Shown: one piece after another, positions 18,666 to 34,327 of the stretch
Position numbering within the stretch: the stretch's first letter is position 1
Layout: each line of letters begins with the position of its first letter
Source of the DNA: a virus
Direction: 5' to 3' (one strand)
Virus record (IMG/VR): IMGVR_UViG_3300031223_000011
Coordinates: 1 to 56,172 of that record
Length of the DNA: 56,172 bases
Notes under the pieces: model-generated
Databases searched by the model: none
Told to the model about the DNA's origin: nothing
Seen by the model: only the letters and a program-made list of their open reading frames with translations
Translations under genes and position numbers: made by a program

Positions 18666-18668
18666 AGG

Positions 18669-19642: not shown

Positions 19643-19650
19643 GATATAAT
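19622..19650 (+). promoter_or_regulatory. Promoter ahead of the rIIA/rIIB operon
   Basis: TTGACG, 17 bases, TATAAT, inside the end of the preceding gene. AGGAGG follows for the 68-residue gene. No ACAC/GTGT palindrome. Confidence 0.7.
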
Positions 19651-19667
19651 ATAAATAGGAGGTAATT

Positions 19668-19874: not shown

Positions 19875-21835
19875 AATACCAAACTTCAGAAAATAAACTA
19901 ATACAGTCACAGAAAACTATGTCGGTAGAGTTGAGCCTTAATGACACAAAAAAGGCTATTGAACTTCTTTACTCTCAATACAGAAATCCAATTAGAACTA
20001 CCGTACAGGAAATTGTATCCAATGCTTTTGATGCGATGACGCAATCTGGCAAGGAAAATGTGCCTATAAAAATACAAGTACCTAACGAAATAAATGACTT
20101 TATGTTTGGTGTTAGGGATTACGGCAATAGTATGGATGATCATACTATAAAAACAGTTTATATGAGAGTAAACGCTACGACAAAAGGCGCAAGTAACAAT
20201 CAAATAGGAGGATTTGGTATTGGCTCTAAGACACCTTGGAGTTACACCGACACGTTTATATTGAAAACCTTTTTAAATGGAGTAGAGACTCATTACGTGC
20301 TTGTTAAGGGTAGAAATACAGTGCAAATAGGTTACAAAGGTGAGACTGAAGAAGATAATGGCACTGAGGTACTTTTTAAAACTAAAAGACAAGACGTTGA
20401 TTCATTTAAGTCTGCCATTAGTCGAATTAGTTTGCTAGCTAAGACTAAACCACAAGTAAATGGACACGTTAGAAATAAAGTGCTTAACAAAATCGAAGCT
20501 TCTAGTAACATATTTTTGATTGACAATTACATTGATTCCGAGATCTCTAAGGTTTTTGTGAGTATGGGAGGAGTTTTGTATAGAATATGTCGTAATGATT
20601 TCCCACTACCTTTAATAGGTCAAATAACTACAGGACTAAAAAATTGTAATCTCATTATAACCTTACCTATTGGATCATTGATGCCACTACAGACAAGGGA
20701 GGGGTTATTCACACAAGGAGACGAGGGACAAAATAACAAAACAATACTAAAAAAAATCCTAAAATCCACTTATGATAAATTAGTAGCCCTAGAGACAAAA
20801 GAAAAAAGTAAAATTGTTGATATAGAGACCGCAATAAACTATAATGCGACGGCTAAATTTACCTTAGAACATAAAGAGTTTTCTTTTGGTAAAGTAAAGG
20901 TAAATTGTAGAAATCAAATTGACGTATCAGAGTTCAAGGTAAAAAACCTATTTAGCATTATTACAAGGAAAAGGAAGCGTTATGGACAAGGCAAAAATTT
21001 GACTGCAAGAAAAGATACTCAAAATTGGATTACCATAGGAGAGAAAACCGTCATGTTTAGTGAAGTTTCACCCAATATAGCTAAACTAAATAAAAGACTT
21101 TGCGAGATTACATATAAAGAAGACGTTGTTGTTCTTGAAAAACATTTATTTGAAAACCAAGAAACTTACGAAATGCTTAAACTTCAATTAAAAGCGATTG
21201 ATGTTCTCAAGATCGAAGTGCCTAAGGTAACTAGAACTTTATCCAGTAGTTACAAGAGAGATAGTAATGAGGTTGTTTTATATAATTATGACAATAGCAG
21301 ATCACATAGCGTATACCTTGACGAAGGGTTTAAATCTCCGACCATCATAAGAAAAAAAGGTGACAACAATGGTATATTTACAGCTAAACATTTAGGTGTA
21401 CTTGGTTATGACGTTTATTATGTTGCACCTTCTAACTTTAAGAAATTTAAAGGTGTTAGTAATGTATTTAATGATTCGGACGTAAATGACCTAACACCAT
21501 TAAGAAAGGAGTATGTTATATGTTTTGCTAACAGGGTAACTAAAAATATTCAACTACAATGGGACTCTGAAAAAATAGAGCTATTACCTGAAAATAAGAG
21601 AATCTTATTTAAAACTAAAACGACTACATTAGATCATTATAATTTCTACGGAATAGAAAAGCTACTAAAAACGAATAAATTCGATAAAGAAATGAGAAGG
21701 GAGATAAAAAGAAAAATAAGAGCTTTCAATTTAGAAAAAAAATTACCTTTAGTTGGGGTAGTAGAATCTTATGACATTGATGGTCAAATAGCTACAGAAT
21801 TAAAAACCTACATAAACAATAAATTGGGAGAATAG
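19871..21835 (+). CDS. rIIA: rIIA-like protein (GHKL ATPase)
   Basis: 654 residues, close to the size of T4 rIIA. The N-terminal GHKL ATPase domain shows the N-box 'EIVSNAFDAM', the G1 box 'DYGNSMDD' and the G2 box 'GGFGIGSKTPWSYTD', which match rIIA proteins. The C-terminal two thirds is less conserved. In T4, rIIA and rIIB are membrane-associated, affect lysis inhibition and allow growth on lambda lysogens carrying the RexAB defence. Paired with rIIB here, separated by one base, so co-translated. Confidence 0.85.
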   Translation: MKYQTSENKLIQSQKTMSVELSLNDTKKAIELLYSQYRNPIRTTVQEIVSNAFDAMTQSGKENVPIKIQVPNEINDFMFGVRDYGNSMDDHTIKTVYMRVNATTKGASNNQIGGFGIGSKTPWSYTDTFILKTFLNGVETHYVLVKGRNTVQIGYKGETEEDNGTEVLFKTKRQDVDSFKSAISRISLLAKTKPQVNGHVRNKVLNKIEASSNIFLIDNYIDSEISKVFVSMGGVLYRICRNDFPLPLIGQITTGLKNCNLIITLPIGSLMPLQTREGLFTQGDEGQNNKTILKKILKSTYDKLVALETKEKSKIVDIETAINYNATAKFTLEHKEFSFGKVKVNCRNQIDVSEFKVKNLFSIITRKRKRYGQGKNLTARKDTQNWITIGEKTVMFSEVSPNIAKLNKRLCEITYKEDVVVLEKHLFENQETYEMLKLQLKAIDVLKIEVPKVTRTLSSSYKRDSNEVVLYNYDNSRSHSVYLDEGFKSPTIIRKKGDNNGIFTAKHLGVLGYDVYYVAPSNFKKFKGVSNVFNDSDVNDLTPLRKEYVICFANRVTKNIQLQWDSEKIELLPENKRILFKTKTTTLDHYNFYGIEKLLKTNKFDKEMRREIKRKIRAFNLEKKLPLVGVVESYDIDGQIATELKTYINNKLGE

Positions 21836-21836
21836 C

Positions 21837-22601
21837 ATGCCAACTGTATTTATTACAAATAAAACTATGACAGTTATTAACAAAGGTAAAATAGAAATAG
21901 TAGATTTGAATACTGATCTAGGTAAGGAATGTTTAATTGCATATCAAGATGATGACATTGATGATATTATTTTTATGATAAACGAAGATAAAATTTTAGG
22001 AGATGATGTAGAAGAATCAACAACCGGAAACATATTAATAGAAGGGGTAGAGTTAGAAGTTGACCTAGCTAACAAAGTTCGACAATTTAAAAACGAAAAC
22101 GTTCCTTTTGATCACCTTCTAAAGTTCGCGGAAAGGGTAAAAGATAACCCCTCTTTTAACAGTAGGAAGATGCTGTATAAGTTTTTAGAACATAACGGTC
22201 ATCCTATCACAAAAACAGGGACTTTTCTTGCTTATAAAAAGGTTACGCATGATTTTAAGGATTTACATACTAAATCTTTTGATAATTCAATTGGTAACGT
22301 AGTAGAGATGGATAGGAATCTAGTAGATGATAATCCGAATAATACCTGTTCTAGTGGGTTACATGTTGCATCTTTTGGGTATGCAAAAGACTTCGGAAAT
22401 GGTAAGCTACTCTTAGTAGAGGTTGCTCCAGAGGACGTAGTCAGCGTTCCAGTAGACTACAAAGGCACAAAGATGAGAACTTCTAGGTACACCGTGTTAA
22501 GTGAAGTTAACGAAGAATTAGACGGTCTAATAGTGGAGGATCGCGACGAATCATTTGAAGAAGATTGGAGTATTGACTATGATGGTAGTTTGTATTGGTG
22601 A
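21837..22601 (+). CDS. rIIB: rIIB-like protein
   Basis: 254 residues. The central and C-terminal part carries the rIIB signature: 'NGHPITKTGTFLAYKKVT', 'SFDNSIGNVVEMDRN', 'CSSGLHVASFGYAKDFG' and 'VVSVPVDYKGTKMR'. Residues 1-60 form a separate N-terminal domain. It directly follows rIIA, as in T4-like phages. Role with rIIA is established only in T4; the same function here is inferred. Confidence 0.85.
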   Translation: MPTVFITNKTMTVINKGKIEIVDLNTDLGKECLIAYQDDDIDDIIFMINEDKILGDDVEESTTGNILIEGVELEVDLANKVRQFKNENVPFDHLLKFAERVKDNPSFNSRKMLYKFLEHNGHPITKTGTFLAYKKVTHDFKDLHTKSFDNSIGNVVEMDRNLVDDNPNNTCSSGLHVASFGYAKDFGNGKLLLVEVAPEDVVSVPVDYKGTKMRTSRYTVLSEVNEELDGLIVEDRDESFEEDWSIDYDGSLYW

Positions 22602-22610
22602 GGAGTAGAA

Positions 22611-22754
22611 ATGAAATGGATATTTTTAATTGTCACAATTAGTACTTTAGCTAGCGAGGTCTGTTACGAAGTGACTTGCACAAGAGTAACTAATGGTGTA
22701 ACTTTATACACAACAGCATGTAACTACTGTCCGATAGGTTGGACACAAGAATAG
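22611..22754 (+). CDS. Small exported Cys protein
   Basis: 47 residues after GAGGAG. A signal-like N-terminus ('WIFLIVTISTLAS') precedes a short mature part with four Cys ('VCYEVTC', 'ACNYC'). Similar in style to the pair at 10988 and 11400 but without clear sequence match. Likely a disulfide-bonded periplasmic peptide. Confidence 0.5.
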   Translation: MKWIFLIVTISTLASEVCYEVTCTRVTNGVTLYTTACNYCPIGWTQE

Positions 22755-22761
22755 GAGAGAT

Positions 22762-22986
22762 ATGAGAACTTTTAAGAAATACGCTAACAGAAAGCTTTAT
22801 AGCACTCAGGATAGTAAGTATGTAAACCTTACTCAATTGTACAATGAAGTAAAAGGCGGAGTGACCGTTATCGTTACTGAAAATAAGACTGGTAGGGATG
22901 TTACACTAGAGACTCTAAAACAGGCTGTAATGCGTTGTAAACCTATGAGCTTAGATAGTGTAGAAGAATTAATTAGAAACGATTAG
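22762..22986 (+). CDS. Stand-alone PhaR-type DNA-binding domain
   Basis: 74 residues after AGGAGA. 'KKYANRKLYSTQDSKYVNLT' and 'TGRDVTLETLKQAV' match the N-terminal DNA-binding domain of PhaR, the polyhydroxyalkanoate synthesis repressor. The C-terminal regulatory part of PhaR is absent. It probably binds DNA, either phage or host promoters; the target is not known. Confidence 0.75.
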   Translation: MRTFKKYANRKLYSTQDSKYVNLTQLYNEVKGGVTVIVTENKTGRDVTLETLKQAVMRCKPMSLDSVEELIRND

Positions 22987-22994
22987 GAGGCATA

Positions 22995-23222
22995 ATGAAG
23001 TACGCTGAGAGCACATTGATGTTACAGTCTATATTAGATAAACTCATTATGGACCATAATGTGGATACTGAACTAAGAGCTGACATTGATGGATATCAAG
23101 TTGCTATGTTTGATTATGAAACTCAAGAAATGTTGGCTAGTTTTAGTGGTGAGGATGAAAAAGAACTAATAGTTAACATGGCACTAGGTAATTTCATTGG
23201 CAGAAGAAGACTTTCATGGTAG
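22995..23222 (+). CDS. Small acidic protein
   Basis: 75 residues after AGGAGG, alpha/beta, with 'RADIDGYQVAMFDYETQEM'. No family recognised. Overlaps the next gene by seven bases. Confidence 0.55.
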   Translation: MKYAESTLMLQSILDKLIMDHNVDTELRADIDGYQVAMFDYETQEMLASFSGEDEKELIVNMALGNFIGRRRLSW

Positions 23223-23413
23223 TGTTATATGTGTTTTTACTTGTAGTACTTTCTTGGTTATTTTCGGTTCATCATGTGGAAAGAGCACATAAGATAGTGG
23301 AAAGGTGTAGGATAGAAAGAACATCTAGGTATAGAAAGTTAAAAAAAGAATTGTTTATAGAAAGAGAACATGTTAAACTACTAGTGAGTTCAGCAGCAAG
23401 GAGAGTGAAGTGA
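23216..23413 (+). CDS. Single-span membrane protein with basic coiled tail
   Basis: 65 residues: an N-terminal membrane segment ('VLYVFLLVVLSWLFSV') followed by a basic helical tail. The topology recalls an inner-membrane spanin but it is much too short to be one with confidence. Confidence 0.45.
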   Translation: MVVLYVFLLVVLSWLFSVHHVERAHKIVERCRIERTSRYRKLKKELFIEREHVKLLVSSAARRVK

Positions 23414-24297
23414 TAACAATAAGAACTCAGAGAGAATGGGATGAGCTACCAGAATTGTTCGATGAGTTTACCGTGATTGAAATAAGGTCGGAAGAATGGG
23501 TTAAGATAAGAAAGACACCTGAAAACTCTCGTGTTGAGGCATGGGGCTCTTCTCGTGTTGAGGCAAGGGGCTCTTCTCGTGTTGAGGCAAGGGGCTCTTC
23601 TCGTGTTGAGGCATGGGGTTCTTCTCATGTTGAGGCATGGGGTTTTTCTCGTGTTGTGGCATGGGGCTCTTCTCGTGTTACGGCATGGGGCTCTTCTGTT
23701 TGTGATAACGGGTCAACAAACACTCAAATTCAAGCAGGAGACAATTCTACACTATATCTAAATGTCGAGCCGGCACACTTTAAGGCTGAAGACACGGTAA
23801 ATATTATCAGGGAGTTTATTTCGCCTTCTTTCGAGCGGTGGCTGAGTCGTGGTTGGGTTGTTGCCGACGGTATTAGACAAAAATTGGTCAGCAAAAAATC
23901 CCTTGGCAACATTACAATTTACACCACTGAGGATTTTTGGGGCGAGACTTTTTACGTCGCACAGCTTGGTGATAAGTTCGCACACGCAAATTCTATTGAA
24001 GAAGCAAAAAATGACCTTAGGTACAAAATTTCTGACAGAGATAAGTCACACTACGAAAGCTGGACGCTCGAAACCAGCGCAAAGGTAGACGATATGATTG
24101 AGGCGTATAGAGTAATAACCGGTGCGTGTTCGACTGGCACGAAAATGTTTTGTGAAGGACGCGAGCTGAAGGATGACTACACGGTTAAAGAGGTGATTGA
24201 TTTAACTAAAGGACAATATGCAAGCGAACAGTTTTCGCAGTTTTTTAAGAGCAAGCAAGGAGAGTTTTTAGCTAAGATTAATGGAGGTGAGAAATGA
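23410..24297 (+). CDS. Octapeptide-repeat (SRVEAWGS) protein
   Basis: 295 residues from a GTG overlapping the previous stop. An N-terminal segment (1-38) is followed by seven or eight tandem copies of an eight-residue unit S-R-V-E-A-W-G-S (about 39-97), probably a beta solenoid. The C-terminal part (about 120-295) has 'YRVITGACSTGTKMF' and 'EVIDLTKGQYASEQF', a module I know from C-termini of phage repeat proteins in other hosts. From about 23760 to 24290 the G+C and codon choice (GCG, CTC, GCC) differ from the AT-rich surroundings, suggesting recent transfer. Function unknown. Confidence 0.6.
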   Translation: MITIRTQREWDELPELFDEFTVIEIRSEEWVKIRKTPENSRVEAWGSSRVEARGSSRVEARGSSRVEAWGSSHVEAWGFSRVVAWGSSRVTAWGSSVCDNGSTNTQIQAGDNSTLYLNVEPAHFKAEDTVNIIREFISPSFERWLSRGWVVADGIRQKLVSKKSLGNITIYTTEDFWGETFYVAQLGDKFAHANSIEEAKNDLRYKISDRDKSHYESWTLETSAKVDDMIEAYRVITGACSTGTKMFCEGRELKDDYTVKEVIDLTKGQYASEQFSQFFKSKQGEFLAKINGGEK

Positions 24298-24482
24298 AAT
24301 ACTTAATATTACTATTGTTTATGGGGTGCGCAACACCAAGACCTGAGGTAACTACACCAAAACAAATAGTATTCAAAAGTAAGCAGGTCCGAATTATGGA
24401 ATGTCTACAATTCGTAAAGTCAATGGAAAGTGATGATAAATTTGCAGGTGAGTTCTGTAGAGGTATCTACAAGGAGGATTAG
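24294..24482 (+). CDS. Small lipoprotein
   Basis: 62 residues with signal peptide and lipobox 'LFMGC' (Cys12). The mature part has 'MECLQFVKSM' and a further Cys near the end. Starts in overlap with the preceding gene. Confidence 0.6.
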   Translation: MKYLILLLFMGCATPRPEVTTPKQIVFKSKQVRIMECLQFVKSMESDDKFAGEFCRGIYKED

Positions 24483-25069
24483 TGTACGTATGTCAATGTG
24501 ATCCAAGTAAGGATGACGCTTTAGAAGCAGTGGGTTCTTTTAGACAGGTGGAAGTAGATGGTGAAGGGATATGTAATGAGTGTGGGTATTATGCATTATT
24601 CACTACCACCTTTCAGGGATCTGCCATGAGAGGAATGTTCGATTCACAAGGATGTACTATTTTTACGAGCAATAAATTGTTTACTTATTTTGAAAACATT
24701 AGACACATAGAGTCAAAGTATCAACTTTATAAGATTAGAAAAGGACTCTCGGAAAATGGATACTATAATGGTAAAAATTACACTGTCATCCTAGGTCATA
24801 AAAATGAACTACCTGAAGAGTTAAAATTTAGTGAACCTAAACCTATATACGTTTTTAAAACTACAGGAAGCTTTGAAGGAGTATACGATACCCAAAAAGC
24901 GGTAACAGATGGCACTGGTGTATCAAAAGAGATCGTAAGGAAATGCTTAAAAGACGGTCAGTGGAAAACTAAGAAAGGGTTTATTATTACTTATAATAAA
25001 AACCTAAACGTACAAGAACATCTTAAAAATATAAAAAAATTAAGGGACCAAGAAGAAATCGATTACTAA
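24482..25069 (+). CDS. Zinc-ribbon and NUMOD1-like DNA-binding protein
   Basis: 195 residues from a GTG. N-terminal Cys pairs ('VCQC' and 'CNECGYY') suggest a zinc ribbon. Residues about 120-170 ('YVFKTTGSFEGVYDTQKAV', 'GVSKEIVRKCLKDG') match NUMOD1-type helix-turn-helix modules found with homing endonucleases, but no nuclease domain is present. It may be a regulator or a homing-nuclease remnant. Confidence 0.55.
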   Translation: MYVCQCDPSKDDALEAVGSFRQVEVDGEGICNECGYYALFTTTFQGSAMRGMFDSQGCTIFTSNKLFTYFENIRHIESKYQLYKIRKGLSENGYYNGKNYTVILGHKNELPEELKFSEPKPIYVFKTTGSFEGVYDTQKAVTDGTGVSKEIVRKCLKDGQWKTKKGFIITYNKNLNVQEHLKNIKKLRDQEEIDY

Positions 25070-25079
25070 AGGTGATAGA

Positions 25080-25307
25080 ATGTTTAAAATAGAAGACGTA
25101 TATTTTGATGAACTAGATTATTTTTTTAACTACGAGTTTGATTTTCCTAATGATGAAACTTTTCCACTAGATAATAAACAGAAAGAGATTGACACAGGGT
25201 ATTGTTCATGTAATAATAGGAAAGAGACTAAGGTTCTAATTATGAACGAAGTTGTATATGTATGTAAAAAAGCCGATGGTGGCTGTGGTCGAGAAATAAA
25301 AAAATGA
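25080..25307 (+). CDS. Small protein with C-terminal zinc ribbon
   Basis: 75 residues. An acidic, aromatic first half is followed by 'YCSCNN' and 'CKKADGGCG', a likely zinc ribbon. Its stop overlaps the start of the PRPP-synthetase-like gene, so it is co-translated with the NAD+ island. Confidence 0.5.
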   Translation: MFKIEDVYFDELDYFFNYEFDFPNDETFPLDNKQKEIDTGYCSCNNRKETKVLIMNEVVYVCKKADGGCGREIKK

Positions 25308-26074
25308 TATACTTAGAAAACCAACCAGTGGATGTTACTATATTTCCTGATAAAACCTCTCAAGTATGGAATGTTAATGAACAATGTTTAGCCTCAATAA
25401 AAAACTTTACTAATGGCGCTCAGTGTACCGTTACTTGGTCTTTTGAAAGTGAGGGTGAATTTCTTCATCTTGCTCAATTAAAAGATCTACTAGATAGCGA
25501 AGGTATTTCGTCTATACTAAATATACCAACGTTACCCTATGCTAGACAAGATAAGGAGATTAACAATAAAGAAACGTTTGCACTTAGAACTTTTGCTAAA
25601 TTATTAAATACTCTAAAATTTAAAAGAGTCTATTCAAAAGACGTACATAATATAAAATTAACGGAAAGTCTAATAGACAACTTCGCTAACATAGCTGCCG
25701 ACCCTTCTATCAATATGGTATTTGATAGAGTAAAAGCTGATATGATATGTTTTCCTGACGAGGGAGCTAAACTTAGGTATAACCTAAAAAAAGAGAGCTG
25801 TTATGGTATCAAAAAACGATGTCCTGAAACAGGGTATATAGAAGGGTATAATTTCGTTGGTGAAGTTAGAGGTAAGATTATTCTGATCTGTGATGATCTT
25901 GTTGATGGCGGTATGACATTTATAAAATGTACTGAGAAATTACTACAAGGGGGGGCGAAAGAGGTTTACTTATATGCCAGTCATGGTATATTTAGTAAAG
26001 GAACTAACGTTCTTTTTGATGCAGGAATTAGTAGAATTTTTACAAAGGAAGGAGAAATAAATGAAAGGTCTTAA
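25304..26074 (+). CDS. PRPP synthetase-like enzyme (candidate ADP-ribose pyrophosphokinase)
   Basis: 256 residues, shorter than the usual 310. It keeps the ATP-binding segment 'PYARQDKE' (79-86), a 'SKDVHN' in place of the usual VDLHA loop, and the PRPP-type loop 'ICDDLVDGGMT' (VDDMIDTGGT in bacterial enzymes). It overlaps the NAMPT gene by 14 bases. In phages with the NARP1 pathway, a Prs-like enzyme (Adps) pyrophosphorylates ADP-ribose and a NAMPT-like enzyme (Namat) adds nicotinamide to rebuild NAD+. The pairing suggests that role. Making PRPP for nicotinamide salvage is the alternative and cannot be excluded by sequence reading. Confidence 0.8.
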   Translation: MIYLENQPVDVTIFPDKTSQVWNVNEQCLASIKNFTNGAQCTVTWSFESEGEFLHLAQLKDLLDSEGISSILNIPTLPYARQDKEINNKETFALRTFAKLLNTLKFKRVYSKDVHNIKLTESLIDNFANIAADPSINMVFDRVKADMICFPDEGAKLRYNLKKESCYGIKKRCPETGYIEGYNFVGEVRGKIILICDDLVDGGMTFIKCTEKLLQGGAKEVYLYASHGIFSKGTNVLFDAGISRIFTKEGEINERS

Positions 26075-28499
26075 TGCGATGTTATTAGCTGATTTTTATA
26101 AGCTAGCTCATCGTCGCCAGTATCCAGAGGGGACAGAATATGTATTCTCCACTTGGACTCCACGATCAGGAAAACATTTACCCAACTCAGAACATGCTGT
26201 TTGTTTTGGTATTCAAGGATTCGTTAAAGAATTTCTAATTGACTTTTTTAATGAGAGTTTTTTCAGTAAAGACAAGCAAGAAATAGTAAAAGAGTACAAA
26301 AGATTCGTAAGTGCTACATTATTAGTTAAAGACCCAGAAACTGATCATATCGAAGATCTTCACGATCTAGGTTATTTACCTATCCTTGTTAAATCGTTAG
26401 AGGAGGGCACTAGAGTTCCTTTCCGAGTTCCCATGATGACCATTGAGAACACTGATCCTAGATTCTTCTGGTTGACTAATTATCTAGAAACCCTAGCTTC
26501 ATGTAATCTATGGAAACCTTCAACAACTGCAACTATTTCTTTAATGTATCGAGAAATCTTGAACAAGTATGCTATGGAGACAACGGGCTCTATGGAGGGC
26601 GTAGAGTTCCAAGGGCATGATTTTAGTATGAGAGGGATGAGTGGTATGGAAGATGCTGCTAGAGCTGGTACCGGGCATCTTCTGAGCTTTGTAGGCACTG
26701 ATACTATACCTGCTATCCAATATTTAGAACAATACTATAATACTGACGTTACAAAAGAACTTGTAGGATGTTCAGTTCCTGCTTCAGAGCATTCTGTGAT
26801 GTCATCAGGTTCGAAAGAAGGAGAGTTTGAAACTTACAGAAGATTGATTGAAGACGTACATCCTACTGGAATTGTTTCACTTGTTTCTGATACTTGGAAT
26901 CTATGGCATGTAATAACTGACACTCTTCCTAAACTTAAAGATAAGATTATGACTAGAGACGGTGGACCTGACAGTTTAGATAAAGTCGTCATCAGACCCG
27001 ACTGCTACGATGACCAAACTAAGATTATGACGGAAAGAGGGTGGGTTTTCTTTGATGACTTACGACCTGAAGATAAAGTAGCGCAGGTTTTAGATGATGG
27101 ATCTCGGGAGTATATTAAACCAACTAAAGTAGTAAAACAAAGATATGAAGGACCTATGGTTAGTTTTAAGGATCATTTTGGTAAAATGGATTTGATTGTT
27201 ACCCCCAACCATAGAATGATTTTTAATAAAAAAGGAACTGAGTTTGTTCAACTAGCTGAAGATTTCACTCAAGGGTATCATGGTAAAAACATAGTTAGAA
27301 GTTCACCAACAAAAGACCTCAATGAATTTATCAGTCCTATGGATAGATTAAAGATAGCATTTCAGGCTGACGGTAGTTACCAAACAGGCAAGACTGATAG
27401 AATTAGGTTTAGCTTTTCTAAAGAGAGGAAAATAAAAAGACTATCTAATATCCTCGATCAGTTAAACTATGAATATAAAATAAACAACTTAGGTGGCGGG
27501 AGCGTTGAATTTAAAGTCAACACTGTTGTTGAATTAAGTAAAGACTTCAATTGGGTAAACACGGTTAATCCTTGTTCTAATTGGTGTAAGCAATTCATAA
27601 ACGAACTATCTCATTGGGATGCAACTATTAGAAATGAAGGTAGAATAAAGTTCGATACAACAAACGAAAATGTCATAGGAGTCGTTGAGGAAATCGCATT
27701 ATGTTCTGGTTATGGGGTTTTGGTTTGTGAAAAAGAAGATAATAGAAAAGAACATTTTTCTAAGGTATACACTGCTCATATATTAAAGAATAATGAAATC
27801 GGTGGACAGTCTATAAAAAAAGAAACTATAGAAAAGTATAATGGATTTGTTCATTGTGTACAAGTGCCAACTGGTAAGATTTTAGTAAAAAGGAACAGAT
27901 GTACTGCGGTTTGTGGTAACAGTGGCGACCCTGTAGACATCCTTTGTGGAACATATAAAGAAGGTCATATATTACCAAAATCTCTACCAGAGCATAAAGG
28001 AGTGGTAGAACTTCTATGGGACATTTTTGGAGGAACTGTAAATGAACAAGGCTACAAAGTTCTAGACTCTCACATTGGAGCTATCTACGGAGACTCTATC
28101 ACCCCTGAGAGATGTACACAGATTTGTGAAAGGTTGAAAGCTAAAGGTTTTGCTTCAACCAATGTTGTCTTCGGTATCGGTTCTTATACTTACCAATACA
28201 TAACCAGAGATTCTTTAGGCTTTGCTATGAAAGCTACTTCCGTTACTATTAACGGAAAAAAACAAGCTATCTTCAAAGATCCAATTACAGATGATGGGAC
28301 AAAGAAATCAGCTAAGGGTAGAGTTGTGGTGCTTGAGGACGAGGAGAACGGTATCCATTATGTAGATAGTAGTATGTATAACAGTAGTGAATTGAACCTA
28401 TTATCACAATCTGACCTGTTGACACCTATTTTTGAAAATGGTAAACTCTTAAAAGAGACATCATTGGTAGAAGTGAGGAGTAGGTTAAATGATAACTAA
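26061..28499 (+). CDS. NAMPT-like enzyme interrupted by an intein
   Basis: 812 residues as translated; 506 after removal of a 306-residue intein, matching the roughly 490 of NAMPT. The N-extein begins 'LLADFYKLAHRRQYPEGT' and includes 'FSMRGMSGMEDA' and 'ASEHSVMSSGSKEGE', the conserved substrate-binding region with the catalytic His. The intein splits 'VIRPD' from 'SGDPVDILCG', at the invariant Arg-x-Asp nucleotide-binding motif. The enzyme joins nicotinamide to PRPP, or in phage NARP1 (Namat) to ADP-ribose pyrophosphate to give NAD+ directly. Its gene is flanked in overlap by the Prs-like and macro domain genes. Confidence 0.9.
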   Translation: MKGLNAMLLADFYKLAHRRQYPEGTEYVFSTWTPRSGKHLPNSEHAVCFGIQGFVKEFLIDFFNESFFSKDKQEIVKEYKRFVSATLLVKDPETDHIEDLHDLGYLPILVKSLEEGTRVPFRVPMMTIENTDPRFFWLTNYLETLASCNLWKPSTTATISLMYREILNKYAMETTGSMEGVEFQGHDFSMRGMSGMEDAARAGTGHLLSFVGTDTIPAIQYLEQYYNTDVTKELVGCSVPASEHSVMSSGSKEGEFETYRRLIEDVHPTGIVSLVSDTWNLWHVITDTLPKLKDKIMTRDGGPDSLDKVVIRPDCYDDQTKIMTERGWVFFDDLRPEDKVAQVLDDGSREYIKPTKVVKQRYEGPMVSFKDHFGKMDLIVTPNHRMIFNKKGTEFVQLAEDFTQGYHGKNIVRSSPTKDLNEFISPMDRLKIAFQADGSYQTGKTDRIRFSFSKERKIKRLSNILDQLNYEYKINNLGGGSVEFKVNTVVELSKDFNWVNTVNPCSNWCKQFINELSHWDATIRNEGRIKFDTTNENVIGVVEEIALCSGYGVLVCEKEDNRKEHFSKVYTAHILKNNEIGGQSIKKETIEKYNGFVHCVQVPTGKILVKRNRCTAVCGNSGDPVDILCGTYKEGHILPKSLPEHKGVVELLWDIFGGTVNEQGYKVLDSHIGAIYGDSITPERCTQICERLKAKGFASTNVVFGIGSYTYQYITRDSLGFAMKATSVTINGKKQAIFKDPITDDGTKKSAKGRVVVLEDEENGIHYVDSSMYNSSELNLLSQSDLLTPIFENGKLLKETSLVEVRSRLNDN
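27003..27920 (+). mobile_element. Intein with LAGLIDADG-type endonuclease remnant in NAMPT
   Basis: 306 residues (315-620 of the precursor). It begins with Cys ('CYDDQTKIMTERGWVFFDDL'), has the block B 'TPNH' motif, and ends 'VCGN' before Ser, so the nucleophiles are Cys1, the terminal Asn and +1 Ser; the penultimate residue is Gly rather than the usual His. The middle holds 'KIAFQADGS' and, about 140 residues on, 'FINELSHWDA', which fit the two motifs of a DOD/LAGLIDADG homing endonuclease, both with Asp retained. It may be active. Confidence 0.88.
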
Positions 28500-28944
28500 A
28501 CACATCAAGGGTGACGTTAGAGACACAGAACTTAACTTCATGGCTCACGGTGTAAACTGTCAGAATGTCATGGGTAGTGGGGTAGCTAGAGCTTTATTTG
28601 AAAGATACCCAGAAGTAAAAAGCGAATACCACCGTTACCTTTCTCTAGATGATGAAGTATTTGGTAGTGCTCATAGACTAGGAGAAGTGCAACTTGTTGA
28701 TGTTGGATCTGATAAAACCGTGCTTAACATGTTCACACAGAATAACTACGGAGGTGACGGTAGTAGGTATGTTAATTATGATGCTATATTTAATTGTTTC
28801 ATTTTCGTTAATAACGTGCTAAAGTTACCTAAATTGGCAATACCTAAGATAGGATGTGGGCTTGCTGGAGGTAGTTGGAATCTAGTTGAAGCTATTATAA
28901 ATGAGTGTACACCAGATACTGAGGTATGGGTTTATGAGTATTGA
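28489..28944 (+). CDS. Macro domain protein (ADP-ribose binding or phosphatase)
   Basis: 151 residues, a single macro domain. 'IKGDVRDTELNFMAHGVNCQ', 'GSGVARALFERYPEV' and 'IPKIGCGLAGGSWNLV' match the ALC1/TARG1/Poa1 branch, whose members bind ADP-ribose and include ADP-ribose-1''-phosphatases and deacylating hydrolases. It overlaps the end of the NAMPT gene by 11 bases. In this setting it may clear ADP-ribose-1''-phosphate, remove ADP-ribosylation, or bind a defence signal; the choice is inference. Confidence 0.85.
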   Translation: MITKHIKGDVRDTELNFMAHGVNCQNVMGSGVARALFERYPEVKSEYHRYLSLDDEVFGSAHRLGEVQLVDVGSDKTVLNMFTQNNYGGDGSRYVNYDAIFNCFIFVNNVLKLPKLAIPKIGCGLAGGSWNLVEAIINECTPDTEVWVYEY

Positions 28945-29446
28945 TTGGTCTAAATCTCATTGTGGCGTCATGTTATGTTCTTTTGACGAAACCATAAGAA
29001 TGATGCCAGAAGTGAAACCTATTCTAGACGATCTTATAGGTAAACTCGAACTAGATATTAGTGAATGTGTCGTTGATGTAAAAGTTCACATGTTGATGCC
29101 GGATGAATACCCCTGTATACCTAACTGGCATAGAGATTTTATACCTAGGAATACTAAATTACACAAATTACATAAAAATATCAGTAATCAAAAAATGTAC
29201 TTGTGGATAAGCGGAGAACCGAAGACTGAATGGAAAAAAGAACCAAAAAAACTATCAGGAGAGTATGATTGGGTTGAATTTACGCAACGAGATGTTCACA
29301 GAGGAGTTAAATCAACGAAACATACATGGAGGTGTTTTATTAGAGTTATACCTAAAGACTTCATTCACCCAACAACAACTAATGTTGGTCAACTTAGAAG
29401 ACATTCGCAGGTTTACATTGACGATCCTGATAGGTTCAATTGGTGA
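28934..29446 (+). CDS. Probable 2-oxoglutarate/Fe(II) oxygenase-like protein
   Basis: 170 residues from the ATG nine bases after GAGGT, overlapping the macro gene. 'CIPNWHRDFIPR' gives an HxD pair and 'RDVHRGVKSTKHTWRCFIRV' a distal His and Arg, in the order and spacing of the double-stranded beta-helix oxygenases. The middle 'KMYLWISGEP' fits a core strand. The substrate is unknown. Co-translation with the NAD+ genes suggests, but does not show, a joint task. Confidence 0.55.
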   Translation: MSIDWSKSHCGVMLCSFDETIRMMPEVKPILDDLIGKLELDISECVVDVKVHMLMPDEYPCIPNWHRDFIPRNTKLHKLHKNISNQKMYLWISGEPKTEWKKEPKKLSGEYDWVEFTQRDVHRGVKSTKHTWRCFIRVIPKDFIHPTTTNVGQLRRHSQVYIDDPDRFNW

Positions 29447-29613
29447 ATTATAATATTTGGAGATTCATATGGGACAGTTTTGACTTGTTTTACAGTATTA
29501 CAGGATTGAGAGCGCAAGTTCCAATTGAATATTTTTATCCTAATTTATGTCAGTGGTTATTTGCAAAAATGACAGGAATAAAAGGGGTCAGGGTTGAAAA
29601 GAAATCCTTGTAA
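29443..29613 (+). CDS. Small unknown protein
   Basis: 56 residues from a GTG overlapping the previous stop (GTGA). Aromatic-rich ('WRFIWDSFDLFYSITG'), perhaps membrane-associated. Ends 20 bases inside the HNH gene. Confidence 0.4.
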   Translation: MNYNIWRFIWDSFDLFYSITGLRAQVPIEYFYPNLCQWLFAKMTGIKGVRVEKKSL

Positions 29614-29935
29614 TAGAGATAGAGTGTGTTTTCATGGTTACACCGTTCTCAGAGATGGAACCGTTCTAAGCAAAAAAGGTCAACCTATGAAGTTTGAGAA
29701 AAGAATGAGAAGAGGTAACGACGGTAAGTTTGACTTGTGTGTTAGGTTAAGATATCGTGGCAAGAGCAAGAAGTGGACTTTGCAAAGGCTAATTGCTGCA
29801 TGTTTTCTTGGTCCAATAGATGGATATGAAATCAATCACATAGACCGTGATCCTACAAATTGTCATGTTAATAACTTAGAGAGACTCACGCCTTCTGAAA
29901 ACCAGAAACATTGGAGAGATGATGAGAAGTCCTGA
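29594..29935 (+). CDS. HNH homing endonuclease
   Basis: 113 residues from a TTG, the only start in its frame. The N-terminal part has 'HGYTVLRDGTVLSKKGQPM', as in NUMOD-type modules, and residues about 85-110 ('GYEINHIDRDPTNCHVNNLE') form the HNH core with catalytic His in INHID. Free-standing HNH genes spread by cutting genomes that lack them. It sits between otherwise coupled genes, overlapping both. Confidence 0.85.
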   Translation: MKRNPCNRDRVCFHGYTVLRDGTVLSKKGQPMKFEKRMRRGNDGKFDLCVRLRYRGKSKKWTLQRLIAACFLGPIDGYEINHIDRDPTNCHVNNLERLTPSENQKHWRDDEKS

Positions 29936-30185
29936 CTATATATACACTTGGAGTTATTACTCAGAAAAACAAAAAGCAGTAAATACTGTTATTAAAAGAT
30001 ATAAACTACCAATGTCTTTCGGAATCTCAGAATATGTGAATACTAGTAATGATTCTATTATTGATTATTTAATGAATAGATTAAACTATGCACAAAGTGA
30101 AGAATGTGGAGAAGCCGCCAACTCTGGCGTTTATAATGCACAAAAGGCTATTGAATTACTAAACACACTAAAAGGTATATTATGA
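29919..30185 (+). CDS. Small unknown protein
   Basis: 88 residues, helical with a Tyr-rich start ('YIYTWSYYSEKQKAV'). Overlaps the HNH gene by 17 bases and the nuclease gene by four. No family recognised. Confidence 0.5.
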   Translation: MMRSPDYIYTWSYYSEKQKAVNTVIKRYKLPMSFGISEYVNTSNDSIIDYLMNRLNYAQSEECGEAANSGVYNAQKAIELLNTLKGIL

Positions 30186-31222
30186 AGATCAGTCATTCAG
30201 CAAAAGAAACATTCTTACAATGTGGTGAGAAATATCGACTCCACTACCAAGAACGACTTAGGTCTAAGATATATCCTTCGTTCTTTCTATTAGGAGGGGC
30301 ATTTGACGAAGCCTTGAATTGTCTTTTACTAAGTAAAAAGAGACCTGAAAATTTTACAGAAGAAGAGAGACTTCTCTTCGAACAAGATCCTTATGTGGTA
30401 TTAGACAATGAACTGACTACTCAAGTTTTCAATGGGGAAACGATATATGTTCCGACTTTCATATACGCTAAGTATTTTAGTAAAGACTTTGATGTAAGTT
30501 TAATAGAAGATGAAGACCTAATGTTAATCAATTCAACAGCCGAACGTACAGGTTATAACAGCCTCACTGCGGGGTCCTGTGAAGAGTTCATACTAACATG
30601 TAGGAATGAGATTAAAACGTCTAAGAGGCTCGATGACGACGCTCAGGTGCTTTATAACCTTATCAACTGGTGTACTTGCAGAAGAAGACTTAGATATCTA
30701 TTGGAAATGTACGAGAAAGATGTTCTACCTTTAGTACATGAGGTTTTTGCTGTACAAAAGAAAGTAGAACTTTCAGCAGGCGACCACACTCTAATAGGAT
30801 ATATTGATGTGGTCTTGAGTTATGTTGACGAACCTGATGTTGTTTATGTTACTGATAATAAGTTAGCAAGTAAAGGATACCCCGATAACGCAATTGATGA
30901 TGCTGTACAATTAGCTACATACTGTGAACATGAGGAAACAAATAAGGCTTCTTTTATTGTCACAGAGAAACCACTAAGAAAGAGAGACCCTAGGCATAGG
31001 ATACAAATACTAAAAGGCGAGATAACTGAAGAATTGTTTGAGAAAACGTTTGACGAGTTCGGAGAAGTGGTATATTCTGTAGAGAATGGCGAGTTTGAGA
31101 AGACTGGTATGGATGGAAGTAGACAAGAGTGTTTTAGTTTTGGTCAGAGATGTCAATTTTATAATACATGCAGAGGTGAACCTGAGAAGGATTTTTTAAT
31201 TAAACTAGAAGGTAATAAATGA
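30182..31222 (+). CDS. RecB-like PD-(D/E)XK nuclease with probable Fe-S cluster
   Basis: 346 residues. The N-terminus 'SHSAKETFLQCGEKYRLHY' and the late 'ECFSFGQRCQFYNTC' provide one plus three Cys, the Cas4/AddB pattern for a 4Fe-4S cluster. The catalytic core is visible as 'GYIDVVLSY', 'VYVTDNKLASKG' and 'AVQLATYC'. Such phage enzymes are 5'-3' exonucleases acting with an annealing protein, here Erf at 33041. It lies at the head of the recombination group. Confidence 0.8.
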   Translation: MKISHSAKETFLQCGEKYRLHYQERLRSKIYPSFFLLGGAFDEALNCLLLSKKRPENFTEEERLLFEQDPYVVLDNELTTQVFNGETIYVPTFIYAKYFSKDFDVSLIEDEDLMLINSTAERTGYNSLTAGSCEEFILTCRNEIKTSKRLDDDAQVLYNLINWCTCRRRLRYLLEMYEKDVLPLVHEVFAVQKKVELSAGDHTLIGYIDVVLSYVDEPDVVYVTDNKLASKGYPDNAIDDAVQLATYCEHEETNKASFIVTEKPLRKRDPRHRIQILKGEITEELFEKTFDEFGEVVYSVENGEFEKTGMDGSRQECFSFGQRCQFYNTCRGEPEKDFLIKLEGNK

Positions 31223-31395
31223 TCATAAAGGATAAAGACGAACAAGAATTTAAAGATATGATGGATAGTTGTCTAGAGAGTGTTAATGGAGAAGGACAAA
31301 TTAAAAGAGTCGAATTTGACATAGACAGTAAAGAAGTTAAATTTGTCTTCAAACTTTCCGAATACGAAGGTTGTCTAACTTTTTTGGAGTATTAA
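31219..31395 (+). CDS. 58-residue unknown protein
   Basis: Coupled to the nuclease gene by ATGA overlap and to the next by TAATG. Acidic, with a beta hairpin-like 'RVEFDIDSKEVKFVFKLSE'. Function unknown. Confidence 0.5.
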   Translation: MIIKDKDEQEFKDMMDSCLESVNGEGQIKRVEFDIDSKEVKFVFKLSEYEGCLTFLEY

Positions 31396-31628
31396 TGAAC
31401 ATTCGGGATAAAAAATTATTAATTCAACATGGTTATGGTTTATACATATATACGATCAGTGAAATAGACGATATCTATAGTAAAGACAACGAAGCAGATA
31501 TTTCTTTTCTTTTGCCCAAAAACGGATTGTTTTTTGAAGAAGTAAAAATAAGAAATAGAAATCATTTTTTTCAGTATATAGATGAATTACAATTAGAATT
31601 AAATAAAGGAAACAATGATGGCAGATAA
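31395..31628 (+). CDS. Small unknown protein
   Basis: 77 residues from the ATG in the TAATG overlap. Alpha/beta, with 'KKLLIQHGYGLYIYTISEID'. No family recognised. Confidence 0.5.
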   Translation: MNIRDKKLLIQHGYGLYIYTISEIDDIYSKDNEADISFLLPKNGLFFEEVKIRNRNHFFQYIDELQLELNKGNNDGR

Positions 31629-32301
31629 AAAAGGGAACACTGGTTACAGGAACACTGGTAGCTGGAACACTGGTTACAGGAACACTGGTGACATGAACAC
31701 TGGTAACTATAACAATGGTGACAGTAACACTGGTAGCTGTAACACTGGTAGCCGGAACACTGGTAACTATAACAATGGTGACAGTAACACTGGTAGCTGT
31801 AACACTGGTTACAGGAACACTGGTAACATGAACACTGGTAACATGAACACTGGTAGCTGGAACACTGGTAACTGGAACACTGGTAACTGGAACACTGGTG
31901 ACTGGAACACTGGTGACCTAAATACTACCAAACCTACCGTTAGGCTTTTTAATAAAGATAGCGGATTAGAGTTTAATGGAGAAGTTCACATTAAAATTAG
32001 AAACACTGTAAGTAGTTATCAAAAAATGCTAGGTGAATGGGTCTATGAAAAAAACATGACTGACCAAGAGAAGACTGATAATCCTACATATAAAACTACT
32101 GGAGGATACTTAAAAGTAAACAAAAGTGTTTACAACGGCAAAAAGGTAACGAAGGAGCATATATGTTTTCTAGAATCTTTGCCTAATTTTTGTCCTAAGA
32201 TTCTAAAGGAATGTACTGGTATTGACTTAGAAGAAAAAACATGTAACAATAAAATTGTTGAAATTGATGGCAAAAAATACAAGCTTATGGAGTTAAAATG
32301 A
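31618..32301 (+). CDS. NTGxx pentapeptide-repeat protein, copy 2
   Basis: 227 residues from the second of two tandem ATGs, which gives the same 'MADKKGNTGYRNTG' start as copy 1 at 17603. It has about 20 NTGxx units (residues 7-107), four more than copy 1, then the same C-terminal module ('VRLFNKDSGLEF', 'TTGGYLKVNKSVYNG', 'LPNFCPKILKECTGI'). Repeat DNA is almost identical between the copies while the C-terminal domains have diverged, which points to gene conversion or repeat expansion. Confidence 0.8.
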   Translation: MADKKGNTGYRNTGSWNTGYRNTGDMNTGNYNNGDSNTGSCNTGSRNTGNYNNGDSNTGSCNTGYRNTGNMNTGNMNTGSWNTGNWNTGNWNTGDWNTGDLNTTKPTVRLFNKDSGLEFNGEVHIKIRNTVSSYQKMLGEWVYEKNMTDQEKTDNPTYKTTGGYLKVNKSVYNGKKVTKEHICFLESLPNFCPKILKECTGIDLEEKTCNNKIVEIDGKKYKLMELK

Positions 32302-32603
32302 ATAAGAAGGAATTAGAAGAACATAACAAAGCACTTAGATCTAAACTGGATGAAGTCCAGAAAGATCTAGACGCCTATAAGAATGAAGAGAAGGTCTTAG
32401 GTTTATTAGACGAAGAAGCTGTTGGTGCTTTTTTTGATGATGAGGAAAGAATGTGGAATTTAGTTACCTTAGGTTACAATAAGGACACAGGTGAGGCTAA
32501 AGTAGAAAAGATAGAAAAAGTAAGTCAAGACTTTGCTATGTTAGATTATAGAATTAAACAATTCGTAGCAGAGAATATCAATTTAAAAAACCTTAGGAGG
32601 TAA
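32298..32603 (+). CDS. Small coiled-coil protein
   Basis: 101 residues. The N-terminal 35 residues are coiled coil ('ELEEHNKALRSKLDEVQKDL'); the rest is acidic. Coupled by ATGA to the preceding gene. Confidence 0.5.
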   Translation: MNKKELEEHNKALRSKLDEVQKDLDAYKNEEKVLGLLDEEAVGAFFDDEERMWNLVTLGYNKDTGEAKVEKIEKVSQDFAMLDYRIKQFVAENINLKNLRR

Positions 32604-32605
32604 TT

Positions 32606-33040
32606 ATGGAACTAAAGGATTTAGGGAGGTTCGCAGTAGATGCGGCTCCTCACGCAACAGGAAGAATGATGGTCACTGTAACCCAGTTAGCAGAAAGTAA
32701 GCTAGATGGTGGCAATCAACGATCTTTGTCAGCTATTAATGTGACTTCGGGCGGTAAAAATGAATCTGCTGCTACAGAAAACGGAATCAAACTAGCACTA
32801 AAGAGATTAACTGACCTAAAAGGTAAGTCTGAAATTGTAAAACTAGGCGTTGTGAGCTTGGAAGAGAACAAGAAAGACAACACTTTTGAGAGTGTGGTCC
32901 AGCTTGGTTTTTTTGATAAATCTAATGACGGTGCTGATCTTATTAAGAAAAAATGTCTAGGATTTGGTAGTGGTAAAACAGCAGATGCTGCTGAAGAGGC
33001 TGCTATTAAAAGCGCTCTTAGTTTAATGGGAGAGAAGTAG
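32606..33040 (+). CDS. Unknown protein upstream of Erf
   Basis: 144 residues after TAGGAGG. Two related beta-alpha halves, with 'AATENGIKLALKRLTDLKG' and 'KTADAAEEAAIKSALSLMG', which resemble the ends of double-stranded-RNA-binding or Rad52-like folds in general shape only. Adjacent to Erf, so a recombination role is possible. Confidence 0.5.
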   Translation: MELKDLGRFAVDAAPHATGRMMVTVTQLAESKLDGGNQRSLSAINVTSGGKNESAATENGIKLALKRLTDLKGKSEIVKLGVVSLEENKKDNTFESVVQLGFFDKSNDGADLIKKKCLGFGSGKTADAAEEAAIKSALSLMGEK

Positions 33041-33607
33041 ATGGAAGACGTAAAAAATACAGAGACAAAATTAATTTCAGTGGTAATGTCGAACAATATT
33101 GCAGATATTGCGACTGCATTATCGAAAGCTCAATCTGAACTAGACTCTGCTAAAAAAGACAGCTCTGGCTATGGATACAATTATTCAGATTTAGCATCTG
33201 TTATAAATACATCAAAACCAGTATTAGCAAAACACAATTTATCAGTTGTACAATTAGTAGGCAAACAAACAGAAACTCAAGTTGAAGTTACTACAATCTT
33301 AGCCCACAGTTCAGGTCAGTTTTTTAAGTCGATTGCAACTTTACCTGTTATCGAGATGAAAGGTTGCAACAAGGCACAAGGTGCCGGGGCTTCGTTGAGT
33401 TATCTTAGACGCTATGCATACCAATCAATTATCGGTCAACCGAGTGAAGATAATGATGGGAGTAGTGAAAATAAAAAACCAGCAACCTCTTCTAATTTTA
33501 AGAAGAAAGAGGAACCTAAGAAAGCCGCTAAAAAAGAAGCTACTGCTAAAAAGCCTAACTTTAGAAAGAAAGCTGTAACTACCGAAACAAGTAGTGGAGG
33601 TCTTTAA
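33041..33607 (+). CDS. erf: Erf-family single-strand annealing protein
   Basis: 188 residues. The Erf core is visible: 'IADIATALSKAQSELDSAKK', 'YNYSDLASVINTSKPVLAKH' and 'AQGAGASLSYLRRYAYQSII' followed by 'SEDNDG'. A Lys-rich linker and short tail follow. Erf proteins anneal complementary single strands in phage recombination and end repair; partner is likely the nuclease at 30182. Confidence 0.9.
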   Translation: MEDVKNTETKLISVVMSNNIADIATALSKAQSELDSAKKDSSGYGYNYSDLASVINTSKPVLAKHNLSVVQLVGKQTETQVEVTTILAHSSGQFFKSIATLPVIEMKGCNKAQGAGASLSYLRRYAYQSIIGQPSEDNDGSSENKKPATSSNFKKKEEPKKAAKKEATAKKPNFRKKAVTTETSSGGL

Positions 33608-34174: not shown

Positions 34175-34236
34175 TACCCCCTCTCTTCTTTCGAGATTAG
34201 AGTTGCCCTGAGTACTGGCATAAAAAGACTCACCAT

Positions 34237-34309: not shown

Positions 34310-34327
34310 CCGTTACTGGGAGGTAAA

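What the first reader, a model, noticed from the sequence alone, without database searches (positions are those of the whole stretch)
25304..28944. Overlapping NAD+ regeneration island: Prs-like enzyme, NAMPT and macro domain
Three genes overlap by 11-14 bases and together could rebuild NAD+ from ADP-ribose and nicotinamide, the products of NAD+-degrading host defences. The first two match the layout of the phage NARP1 pathway (Adps and Namat). The added, co-translated macro domain would be an extension of that pathway: it could remove dead-end ADP-ribose-1''-phosphate, strip ADP-ribose from proteins or absorb a nucleotide defence signal.
Basis: partly seen in the sequence, partly recalled or inferred. 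Interest (0 to 1): 0.85.

Follow-up and report, generated by a model that had tools for sequence, protein, structure and literature searches.

The report
Phage NAD+ rescue operon with macrodomain
This virus of bacteria carries a short gene set that probably rebuilds the cell's NAD+ after the host destroys it in self-defence, with an added gene that may release more raw material, while one of its key enzymes is split by a protein insert that probably removes itself.

Summary
The three overlapping genes are real (25304-26074, 26061-28499, 28489-28944; overlaps 14 and 11 nt). The first two look like a NARP1 pair (Adps + Namat). The NAMPT-like protein is 57% identical to Namat of phage SPbetaL1, keeps 17 of 20 NAD+-contact residues and the adenine-clamp motif; no NMN adenylyltransferase match was found. 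Other phages carry Namat inteins there or before a second catalytic motif.

The macrodomain has an ALC1-class fold (DarG/SCO6735/BT1257) with three SCO6735 active-site residues. Its link to NARP1 is not chance: 25 of 35 Pfam Macro hits in 79 related viral contigs lie within 6 kb of Adps, all 25 on its strand (6.2 expected), against 11 of 64 (8.9 expected) for a control family; 3 of 80 bacterial NARP1 loci have one.

Best reading: a three-enzyme ADP-ribose recycling operon in which the macro frees ADP-ribose that Adps and Namat turn into NAD+. A macro gene near NARP1, and an accessory enzyme feeding NARP1, are already in print. Macro activity, Adps substrate and splicing are untested.

The parts
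25080..25307 (+). 75-aa Cys-rich ORF overlapping the Adps start by 4 nt (ATGA); role unknown, may be co-translated
   Evidence: no family match
25304..26074 (+). Adps-like protein (Prs family), 256 aa
   Evidence: phrog_619 E 1.1e-53; nearest solved relatives are PRPP synthetases; next to a Namat-like gene in 78 of 79 related viral loci
26061..28499 (+). Namat precursor, 812 aa; 506 aa without the intein
   Evidence: phrog_448 E 1.4e-196; C-extein best match 9w5x/9w5w, E 4e-59; contact residues
26061..27002 (+). N-extein (residues 1-314), ends in RPD (R312, D314 = R306, D308 of SPbetaL1 Namat)
27003..27920 (+). Intein (residues 315-620, 306 aa): Cys1, block B VTPNHRM, LAGLIDADG-like AFQADGS motif, C-terminal GN followed by Ser+1
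   Evidence: Pfam Intein_splicing E 3e-05, under its cut-off; AlphaFold2 pLDDT 84.4; top Foldseek matches are endonuclease inteins TliVMA, PI-PfuI, PI-SceI
27921..28499 (+). C-extein (residues 621-812), starts SGDP; holds the adenine-clamp motif GSYTYQYITRD (residues 707-717)
28489..28944 (+). Macrodomain protein, 151 aa, ALC1-like class (BT1257/Poa1p/TARG1/DarG/SCO6735 fold)
   Evidence: PF01661; model pLDDT 94.3; VIA Z 18.7-21.6 for these; PADLOC DarG profile E 5e-14
28934..29446 (+). Fourth overlapping ORF (170 aa from ATG 28934), phrog_1843, function unknown; no homologue in the other NARP1 loci then held apart from the same virus

Best explanation
A phage NARP1 operon with a third, co-translated enzyme. 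Adps uses ATP to make ADP-ribose pyrophosphate from ADP-ribose; Namat joins it to nicotinamide to give NAD+ in one step, undoing host NAD+ depletion (chemistry shown elsewhere for homologues, inferred here). The macrodomain, of the DarG/SCO6735/BT1257 kind, hydrolyses ADP-ribose off host-made conjugates (DarT- or ART-type marks on DNA, RNA or protein, or soluble derivatives), undoing that attack and handing free ADP-ribose to Adps (inferred). Namat is translated with an intein inside its active site and becomes active only after splicing (insertion shown by sequence and predicted fold; splicing inferred).
For: Namat: 57% identity (279 of 487) to SPbetaL1 Namat; 7/7 nicotinamide, 6/6 ribose-phosphate and 4/7 AMP-side contacts identical, the other three F392Y, A362S, R40K (contacts from PMC12774641 Results); clamp motif as in that paper's consensus. 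No NMN adenylyltransferase family match in either record of this virus. Intein. Macro: fold; H20, N23 and Q84 align with SCO6735 H24, N27 and Q85 (PMC9411070 passages). Gene association: PF01661, 25 of 35 hits within 6 kb of Adps, 25 of 25 on its strand, 6.2 expected, 0 of 20000 simulations; control Metallophos 11 of 64, 8.9 expected; at least 13 gains or losses on well-supported branches of a quick tree; 28 of 79 viral against 3 of 80 bacterial loci. Precedent for an accessory enzyme feeding NARP1: RyDEP (PMC13232231).
Against: No activity was measured. The Adps substrate is inferred from its partner; the FPDxTSQVW change at a motif that lies in the ATP site of PRPP synthetases (recalled) is unexplained. 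The macro is absent within the fetched flanks (up to 6 kb) of 51 of 79 related viral loci, so it is not essential. Macro genes also lie near two Nampt-like pairs (L048, L057), so the link is not strictly to Namat. SCO6735 V25, deemed catalytically important, is G21 here. The intein's penultimate residue is Gly, not the usual His (recalled), and the Pfam intein models score under their cut-offs, so splicing is unsure. The phage Adele paper notes that NAD+ still falls during infection by the related phage PaP1 despite these genes. The fourth overlapping gene is unexplained.
Confidence: 0.62

Rival explanations
1. NARP1 is right, but the macro protein is a sponge or hydrolase for a soluble ADP-ribose-type immune signal (Thoeris-like), acting before NAD+ loss rather than feeding Adps from conjugates.
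For: Macrodomains bind ADP-ribose and derivatives (general knowledge); RyDEP, inside a NARP1 operon, degrades cADPR signals (PMC13232231). Macro genes appear in several positions around NARP1, as expected of a loosely coupled partner.
Against: Active-site residues of the hydrolytic SCO6735 type (H20, N23, Q84) are kept, which a pure binder would not need.
Confidence: 0.17
2. The macro removes ADP-ribose-1''-phosphate made by phage RNA repair (two RNA ligases and a kinase-like protein are encoded), recycling it to ADP-ribose.
For: RNA ligase matches at 44403-45428 and 46419-47498 and a kinase-like ORF between them; the Poa1p fold is close (Z 19.3); the phage Adele authors suggest a Poa1p-like role (PMC12846349).
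Against: No KptA/Tpt1-type transferase match in either record, which may be incomplete. The macro sits with NARP1, about 15 kb from the ligases.
Confidence: 0.1
3. A canonical salvage pair: the Prs-like enzyme makes PRPP and the NAMPT makes NMN, with host enzymes finishing NAD+.
For: The Prs-like protein matches PRPP synthetase profiles (TIGR01251, E 8.4e-28, under its cut-off). Namat keeps activity with PRPP (PMC12774641).
Against: Adenine clamp and contact residues; the TIGR01251 score of 97.2 is below its cut-off of 113; no adenylyltransferase match.
Confidence: 0.06
4. The macro gene is a passenger of the early-gene region without a functional tie to NARP1.
For: Absent within the fetched flanks of 51 of 79 related viral loci.
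Against: Same-strand clustering, 25 of 25 within 6 kb; the control family Metallophos shows none; repeated gain or loss; overlap of the ORF with the Namat end in 15 of the 28 macro loci.
Confidence: 0.05

Closest known systems
NARP1 of phage SPbetaL1 (Adps + Namat; PMC12774641; Osterman 2024 known only through citing papers)
   Same: Gene order Adps-Namat, clamp motif, catalytic and nicotinamide contacts, 57% identity of Namat
   Different: Active-site intein in Namat; overlapping macrodomain gene; Adps only 24-34% identical to the 11 other Adps-like rows of alignment A1 (SPbetaL1 among them) and of the FPDxTSQVW type
Pseudomonas phage Adele NARP1 with macro gene PaAdele_020 (PMC12846349, passages read)
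   Same: Macro gene downstream of a NARP1 pair; same proposal that it frees ADP-ribose for NARP1
   Different: There one phage and a Poa1p comparison; here the macro overlaps Namat by 11 nt and shows SCO6735-type residues, and the link is tested over 79 viral contigs. Adele's sequence was not fetched
Rheinheimera phage Barba19A gp033-gp034-gp035 (PMC6715854, passages read)
   Same: NAPRTase, Prs and macrodomain genes numbered side by side
   Different: Gene order; annotated as pyridine salvage and host signalling, not as NARP1; sequence not fetched here
RyDEP-NARP1 operon of phage DyoEdafos (PMC13232231, abstract, section 3 and passages read)
   Same: NARP1 operon with an accessory enzyme that makes ADP-ribose for Adps
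   Different: RyR-type glycosidase of cADPR, not a macrodomain
Intein in NAMPT of Staphylococcus phage Clo6 (PMC5526547, passages read)
   Same: Hint/intein insertion in the phage NAMPT; the Clo6 intein matches the window intein along its full length at 50.3%; in its relative V1SA09 the site is RPD|SGDP
   Different: Described in 2017, in the passages seen, without the Namat or active-site context; no macro found within about 4 kb in the two Staphylococcus phage regions examined (L005, L006)
SCO6735 / BT1257 / DarG macrodomains
   Same: Fold (Z 18.7-21.6) and, for SCO6735, residues H24/N27/Q85
   Different: SCO6735 V25 is G21 here; the ORF ends at 151 aa, so there is no DarG C-terminal domain; no DarT was seen among the 30 ORFs scanned, but it was not searched for by its own model

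Membership tests
NARP1 / Namat | Clamp motif GS-x6-TRD with aromatics at positions 3 and 7 | tested here: met
   GSYTYQYITRD, residues 707-717; consensus from PMC12774641
NARP1 / Namat | NAD+-contact residues of the Namat crystal structure | tested here: met
   17 of 20 identical; F392Y, A362S, R40K
NARP1 / Namat | Uses ADPR-PP to make NAD+ directly | not testable with these tools
   enzyme assay needed
NARP1 / Adps | Prs-family protein encoded beside Namat | tested here: met
NARP1 / Adps | Substrate-site residues for ADP-ribose rather than ribose-5-phosphate | tested here: inconclusive
   the loop DGGMTF differs from E. coli Prs DTGGTL but is shared with enzymes paired to Nampt-like proteins
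NARP2 (Nampt + Nmnat) | An NMN adenylyltransferase gene | tested here: not met
   PF01467: 0 of 2 records of this virus; both records may be incomplete
NARP2 (Nampt + Nmnat) | Nampt-type helix without clamp aromatics | tested here: not met
LAGLIDADG intein | Hint splicing fold with Cys1, TxxH block B and C-terminal Asn before Ser/Thr/Cys+1 | tested here: met
   Pfam Intein_splicing 24.3 bits against a cut-off of 35.8; penultimate residue is Gly
LAGLIDADG intein | Protein splicing activity | not testable with these tools
   needs expression
LAGLIDADG intein | Two LAGLIDADG endonuclease motifs | tested here: inconclusive
   AFQADG and a W-D pair are invariant in the aligned relatives and Foldseek finds PI-SceI and I-DmoI, but no Pfam LAGLIDADG model matched the window's intein at E up to 1
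ALC1-like macrodomain (DarG/SCO6735/TARG1) | Fold | tested here: met
   Z 18.7-21.6
ALC1-like macrodomain (DarG/SCO6735/TARG1) | TARG1/DarG catalytic Lys | tested here: not met
   Q84 lies at the SCO6735 Q85 position, equivalent to TARG1 K84 / DarG K80
SCO6735 type | Asn27, Gln85 and His24 equivalents | tested here: met
   N23 and H20 in 22 of 22, Q84 in 18 of 22 aligned phage macros (chain numbers shifted by 20 to SCO6735 numbers, my inference); V25 is not kept

The most novel reading that the evidence does not exclude
Many phages carry a three-enzyme ADP-ribose recycling pathway: a DarG/SCO6735-like macrodomain strips ADP-ribose from host-modified DNA, RNA or protein, and Adps and Namat convert it straight back to NAD+. 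One operon would then undo both ADP-ribosylation-based and NAD+-depleting defences, turning the host's weapon into NAD+. A further, much less likely layer (about 0.05) is that splicing of the active-site intein acts as a post-translational switch for the pathway.
Probability: 0.35. Interest if true: 0.75.

Novelty: new variant of a known kind. Interest (0 to 1): 0.55.

Why it matters
NARP1 was described as a two-gene pathway fed by NADase products. If a macrodomain is a common third member in phages, the pathway may also draw on ADP-ribosylated macromolecules, linking defence against NAD+ depletion with defence against DarT/ART-type attack in one operon. That is directly testable with purified enzymes. 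The Namat inteins at two catalytic motifs add a case of mobile elements placed where loss is hard, and suggest that some phage NAMPT entries of about 800 aa are precursors.

Tried and rejected
Canonical Prs + NAMPT salvage: rejected as main reading (clamp, contacts, no adenylyltransferase match). KptA-linked ADP-ribose-1''-phosphate recycling: no KptA family match, kept as a weak rival. Using the Prs ribose-phosphate loop to prove ADP-ribose specificity: failed, the loop does not separate partners. The fourth overlapping gene as a conserved operon member: no homologue among the ORFs of the loci held at that point apart from the same virus; only a chance-level structure match (E 0.9). DNA-level relatives in the phage collection: none by megablast for 18000-36000. 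Single-protein scans of viral contigs gave only the same virus; an alignment was needed. Nudix genes: 6 hits in the 79 contigs, 2 of them within 6 kb of Adps and on its strand (0.4 expected; 1017 of 20000 simulations as high), too few to judge. Promoter scan: 35 sites against 31.2 in shuffles, uninformative.

Limits of the survey: the viral loci are the 80 best of 545 confirmed relatives, itself a capped list, minus L003, which is the same virus, so 79. They were not chosen for macro genes, but they are not a random sample, and some are near-copies; dropping seven such contigs left 24 of 32 PF01661 hits within 6 kb, 5.8 expected. Beyond 6 kb, five PF01661 hits lie at 6.4-9.5 kb on the Adps strand and five more than 60 kb away on the other strand. 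The 28-of-79 count uses a profile built from the same set; the PF01661 count does not. ORF starts were taken at the first start codon, so long Namat-macro overlaps (for example 140 or 182 nt) are start-choice artefacts. Fetched flanks are shorter than 6 kb at contig ends. The bacterial loci are less similar to the window, and the Fisher test (p 2e-7) ignores relatedness. The tree is a quick one; the macro label is somewhat clustered on it (18 changes against 23.6 in shuffles; 4 of 500 as low), so not every case is independent. Paper lists were capped (15 of 521, 10 of 152, 2 of 3, 15 of 26, 10 of 23).

Full report
What is there. The window is a 56,172-base IMG/VR virus record; a second record of the same virus (80,105 b) is 100% identical over the two stretches compared, 12,768 and 12,453 b. 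On the + strand three ORFs overlap by 14 and 11 nt: 25304-26074, 26061-28499 and 28489-28944. A 75-aa ORF before them overlaps by 4 nt, and a fourth ORF after them by 11 nt if it starts at 28934.

The Namat. PHROGs calls the second protein a nicotinamide phosphoribosyl transferase. Its C-terminal part matches PDB 9w5x/9w5w best (E 4e-59); I take these 491-496-aa chains to be the SPbetaL1 Namat of PMC12774641, since the residues printed agree with the SPbetaL1 gene fetched as L008, though the listing names no phage. With the intein left out, the protein is 57% identical (279 of 487) to SPbetaL1 Namat; that paper gives 36.3% between SPbetaL1 Namat and human or Xcc Nampt. Of 20 NAD+-contact residues in the paper, 17 are identical: nicotinamide 7 of 7, ribose-phosphate 6 of 6, AMP side 4 of 7; the rest are F392Y, A362S and R40K. 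The paper allows Lys at the R40 position, with the next residue stacking on adenine; here that is His39. The clamp motif is GSYTYQYITRD; a bacterial Nampt structure (7yqo, Xanthomonas by recall) has GGALLQKVDRD. No NMN adenylyltransferase family match was found in either record.

The intein. Residues 315-620 interrupt RPD|SGDP, between the residues equal to D308 and S309 of SPbetaL1 Namat. They start with Cys, hold VTPNHRM, and end in GN before Ser. PHROG matches over about 312-636 are phage ribonucleotide reductase, PhoH and thymidylate synthase entries, which I read as inteins in those genes. Pfam Intein_splicing matches at E 3e-05 but under its cut-off, and no LAGLIDADG model matched. The model (pLDDT 84.4) finds endonuclease inteins TliVMA, PI-PfuI and PI-SceI first in the PDB. 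The same site is occupied in Citrobacter phage Tr1 (L007), Staphylococcus phage V1SA09 (L005), L030 and L097; a second site, just before the TEHS motif (catalytic histidine by recall from human NAMPT), is occupied in phiSNIID (L006) and L080. In the phage collection 128 records match the intein; of the 40 listed, 11 lie in NAMPT genes (three of these records are unannotated and were placed). Clo6's insertion was reported as a Hint domain in 2017 (PMC5526547). Splicing is inferred; the penultimate Gly is unusual (recalled).

The Adps. It matches the phage Prs family (phrog_619) and falls below the TIGR01251 cut-off (97.2 against 113). Catalytic surroundings (PYARQD, DxH, PDxGA, K-R, DD..GG.TF) are kept, but the loop does not tell Namat partners from Nampt-like partners. 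The window's group has FPDxTSQVW where SPbetaL1 and P. foliorum Adps have FPNGE. So its substrate rests on its partner.

The macrodomain. The model (pLDDT 94.3) matches BT1257 (Z 21.6, 2.1 A over 145), Poa1p (19.3), TARG1 (19.1), DarG (18.9) and SCO6735 (18.7). PADLOC's DarG profile hits it (E 5e-14); NCBIfam DarG also, far below its cut-off (43.9 against 250). In SCO6735, Gln85 replaces the catalytic Lys of TARG1 and DarG, changes at Gln85 and Asn27 abolish activity, and the enzyme cleaves thymidine-linked ADP-ribose on DNA (PMC9411070, title and passages). In the printed alignment the window's Q84, N23 and H20 sit at these places and at His24; V25 is replaced by G21. N23 and H20 are in 22 of 22 aligned phage macros and Q84 in 18 of 22; the other four (L038, L042, L047, L048) carry Ser there and an NSGLF/A.VPW-type motif that resembles Poa1p. 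So more than one macro subtype has joined NARP1.

Is the association real? A scan of viral contigs with the Adps alignment gave 80 loci, one of them the same virus. Of the other 79, 78 have a Namat-like gene, all on the Adps strand. Of the 79, 51 carry the standard clamp, 21 an extended clamp, 3 other letters, 3 a Nampt-like motif and 1 no hit. The control family Metallophos gives 11 of 64 within 6 kb, 8.9 expected, 3 of the 11 on the same strand; Nudix had only 6 hits, 2 within 6 kb. With my own profile 28 of 79 loci have a macro: 15 overlap the Namat end (three of these 15 are near-copies), 6 lie further downstream, 4 between Adps and Namat, 3 upstream. On a quick Namat tree the label needs 18 changes, at least 13 on well-supported branches, though it is more clustered than in shuffles. 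Of 80 bacterial Adps loci, 78 have Namat and only 3 a macro. So in these samples the macro is mainly a phage addition, gained or lost many times.

What is already known. NARP1 chemistry and the clamp: PMC12774641 (abstract, Introduction, Methods and Results read). Osterman 2024 was not held. An accessory enzyme inside a NARP1 operon that makes ADP-ribose for it: RyDEP (PMC13232231; abstract, section 3 and passages). A macro gene downstream of NARP1, with the same proposal: Pseudomonas phage Adele (PMC12846349, passages), which also notes that NAD+ falls during infection by the related PaP1. Barba19A has the three genes side by side (PMC6715854, passages). NADAR genes near NadV: PMC9503650 (passages). 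Phage counter-measures to DarT by an antitoxin mimic are known (PMC11481870, passages). My searches, whose lists were partly capped, did not show a paper that tests the NARP1-macro link across phages or names the Namat active-site intein as such; subscription papers are mostly outside that library.

Mechanism. Shown here: gene order, overlaps, Namat signature, intein and its site, predicted macro fold and residues, statistical link. Inferred: NAD+ formation by this pair, splicing, macro hydrolysis, and ADP-ribose hand-over to Adps. I give 0.62 to the whole reading; the NARP1 identity and the intein alone I would put at about 0.9 or more.

Verdict. It is a new variant of a known kind with a clear biochemical test.

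Noticed in passing
window 28934-29446: Fourth overlapping ORF, phrog_1843 of unknown function; its H-D...H...R pattern could suit a 2OG-Fe oxygenase (recall only, no match found).
   Followed up: partly
window 23410-24297, 31615-32301, 17603-18244: Repeat proteins: SRVEARGSS-type repeats at 23410-24297 and NTG-type repeats at 31615-32301 (translations); the DNA at about 17619-17850 is 89-93% like part of the NTG-repeat stretch.
   Followed up: no
window 44403-47498: RNA-repair-like cassette: RNA ligase (phrog_548), kinase-like ORF, second RNA ligase (phrog_562).
   Followed up: no
window 34237-34311: tRNA-His gene.
   Followed up: no
L048, L057, L085: Prs-like genes beside Nampt-like proteins (GGLLLQ motif) that nest among Namats in the quick tree; L048 and L057 also have macro genes. 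Possible loss of the clamp or long-branch placement.
   Followed up: partly
21 loci between L051 and L090: Namats with an extended clamp helix (by hand count about 9 to 24 extra residues before TRD); 14 of these 21 have a macro gene, against 11 of 51 with the standard clamp.
   Followed up: partly
L006 3998-6436, L080 2440-4974: Inteins at a second Namat site, just before the TEHS motif.
   Followed up: yes
L086 8197-8703 and 11316-11759: Two different macro genes downstream of one NARP1 pair.
   Followed up: no
window 29594-29935: HNH endonuclease ORF shortly after the operon.
   Followed up: no
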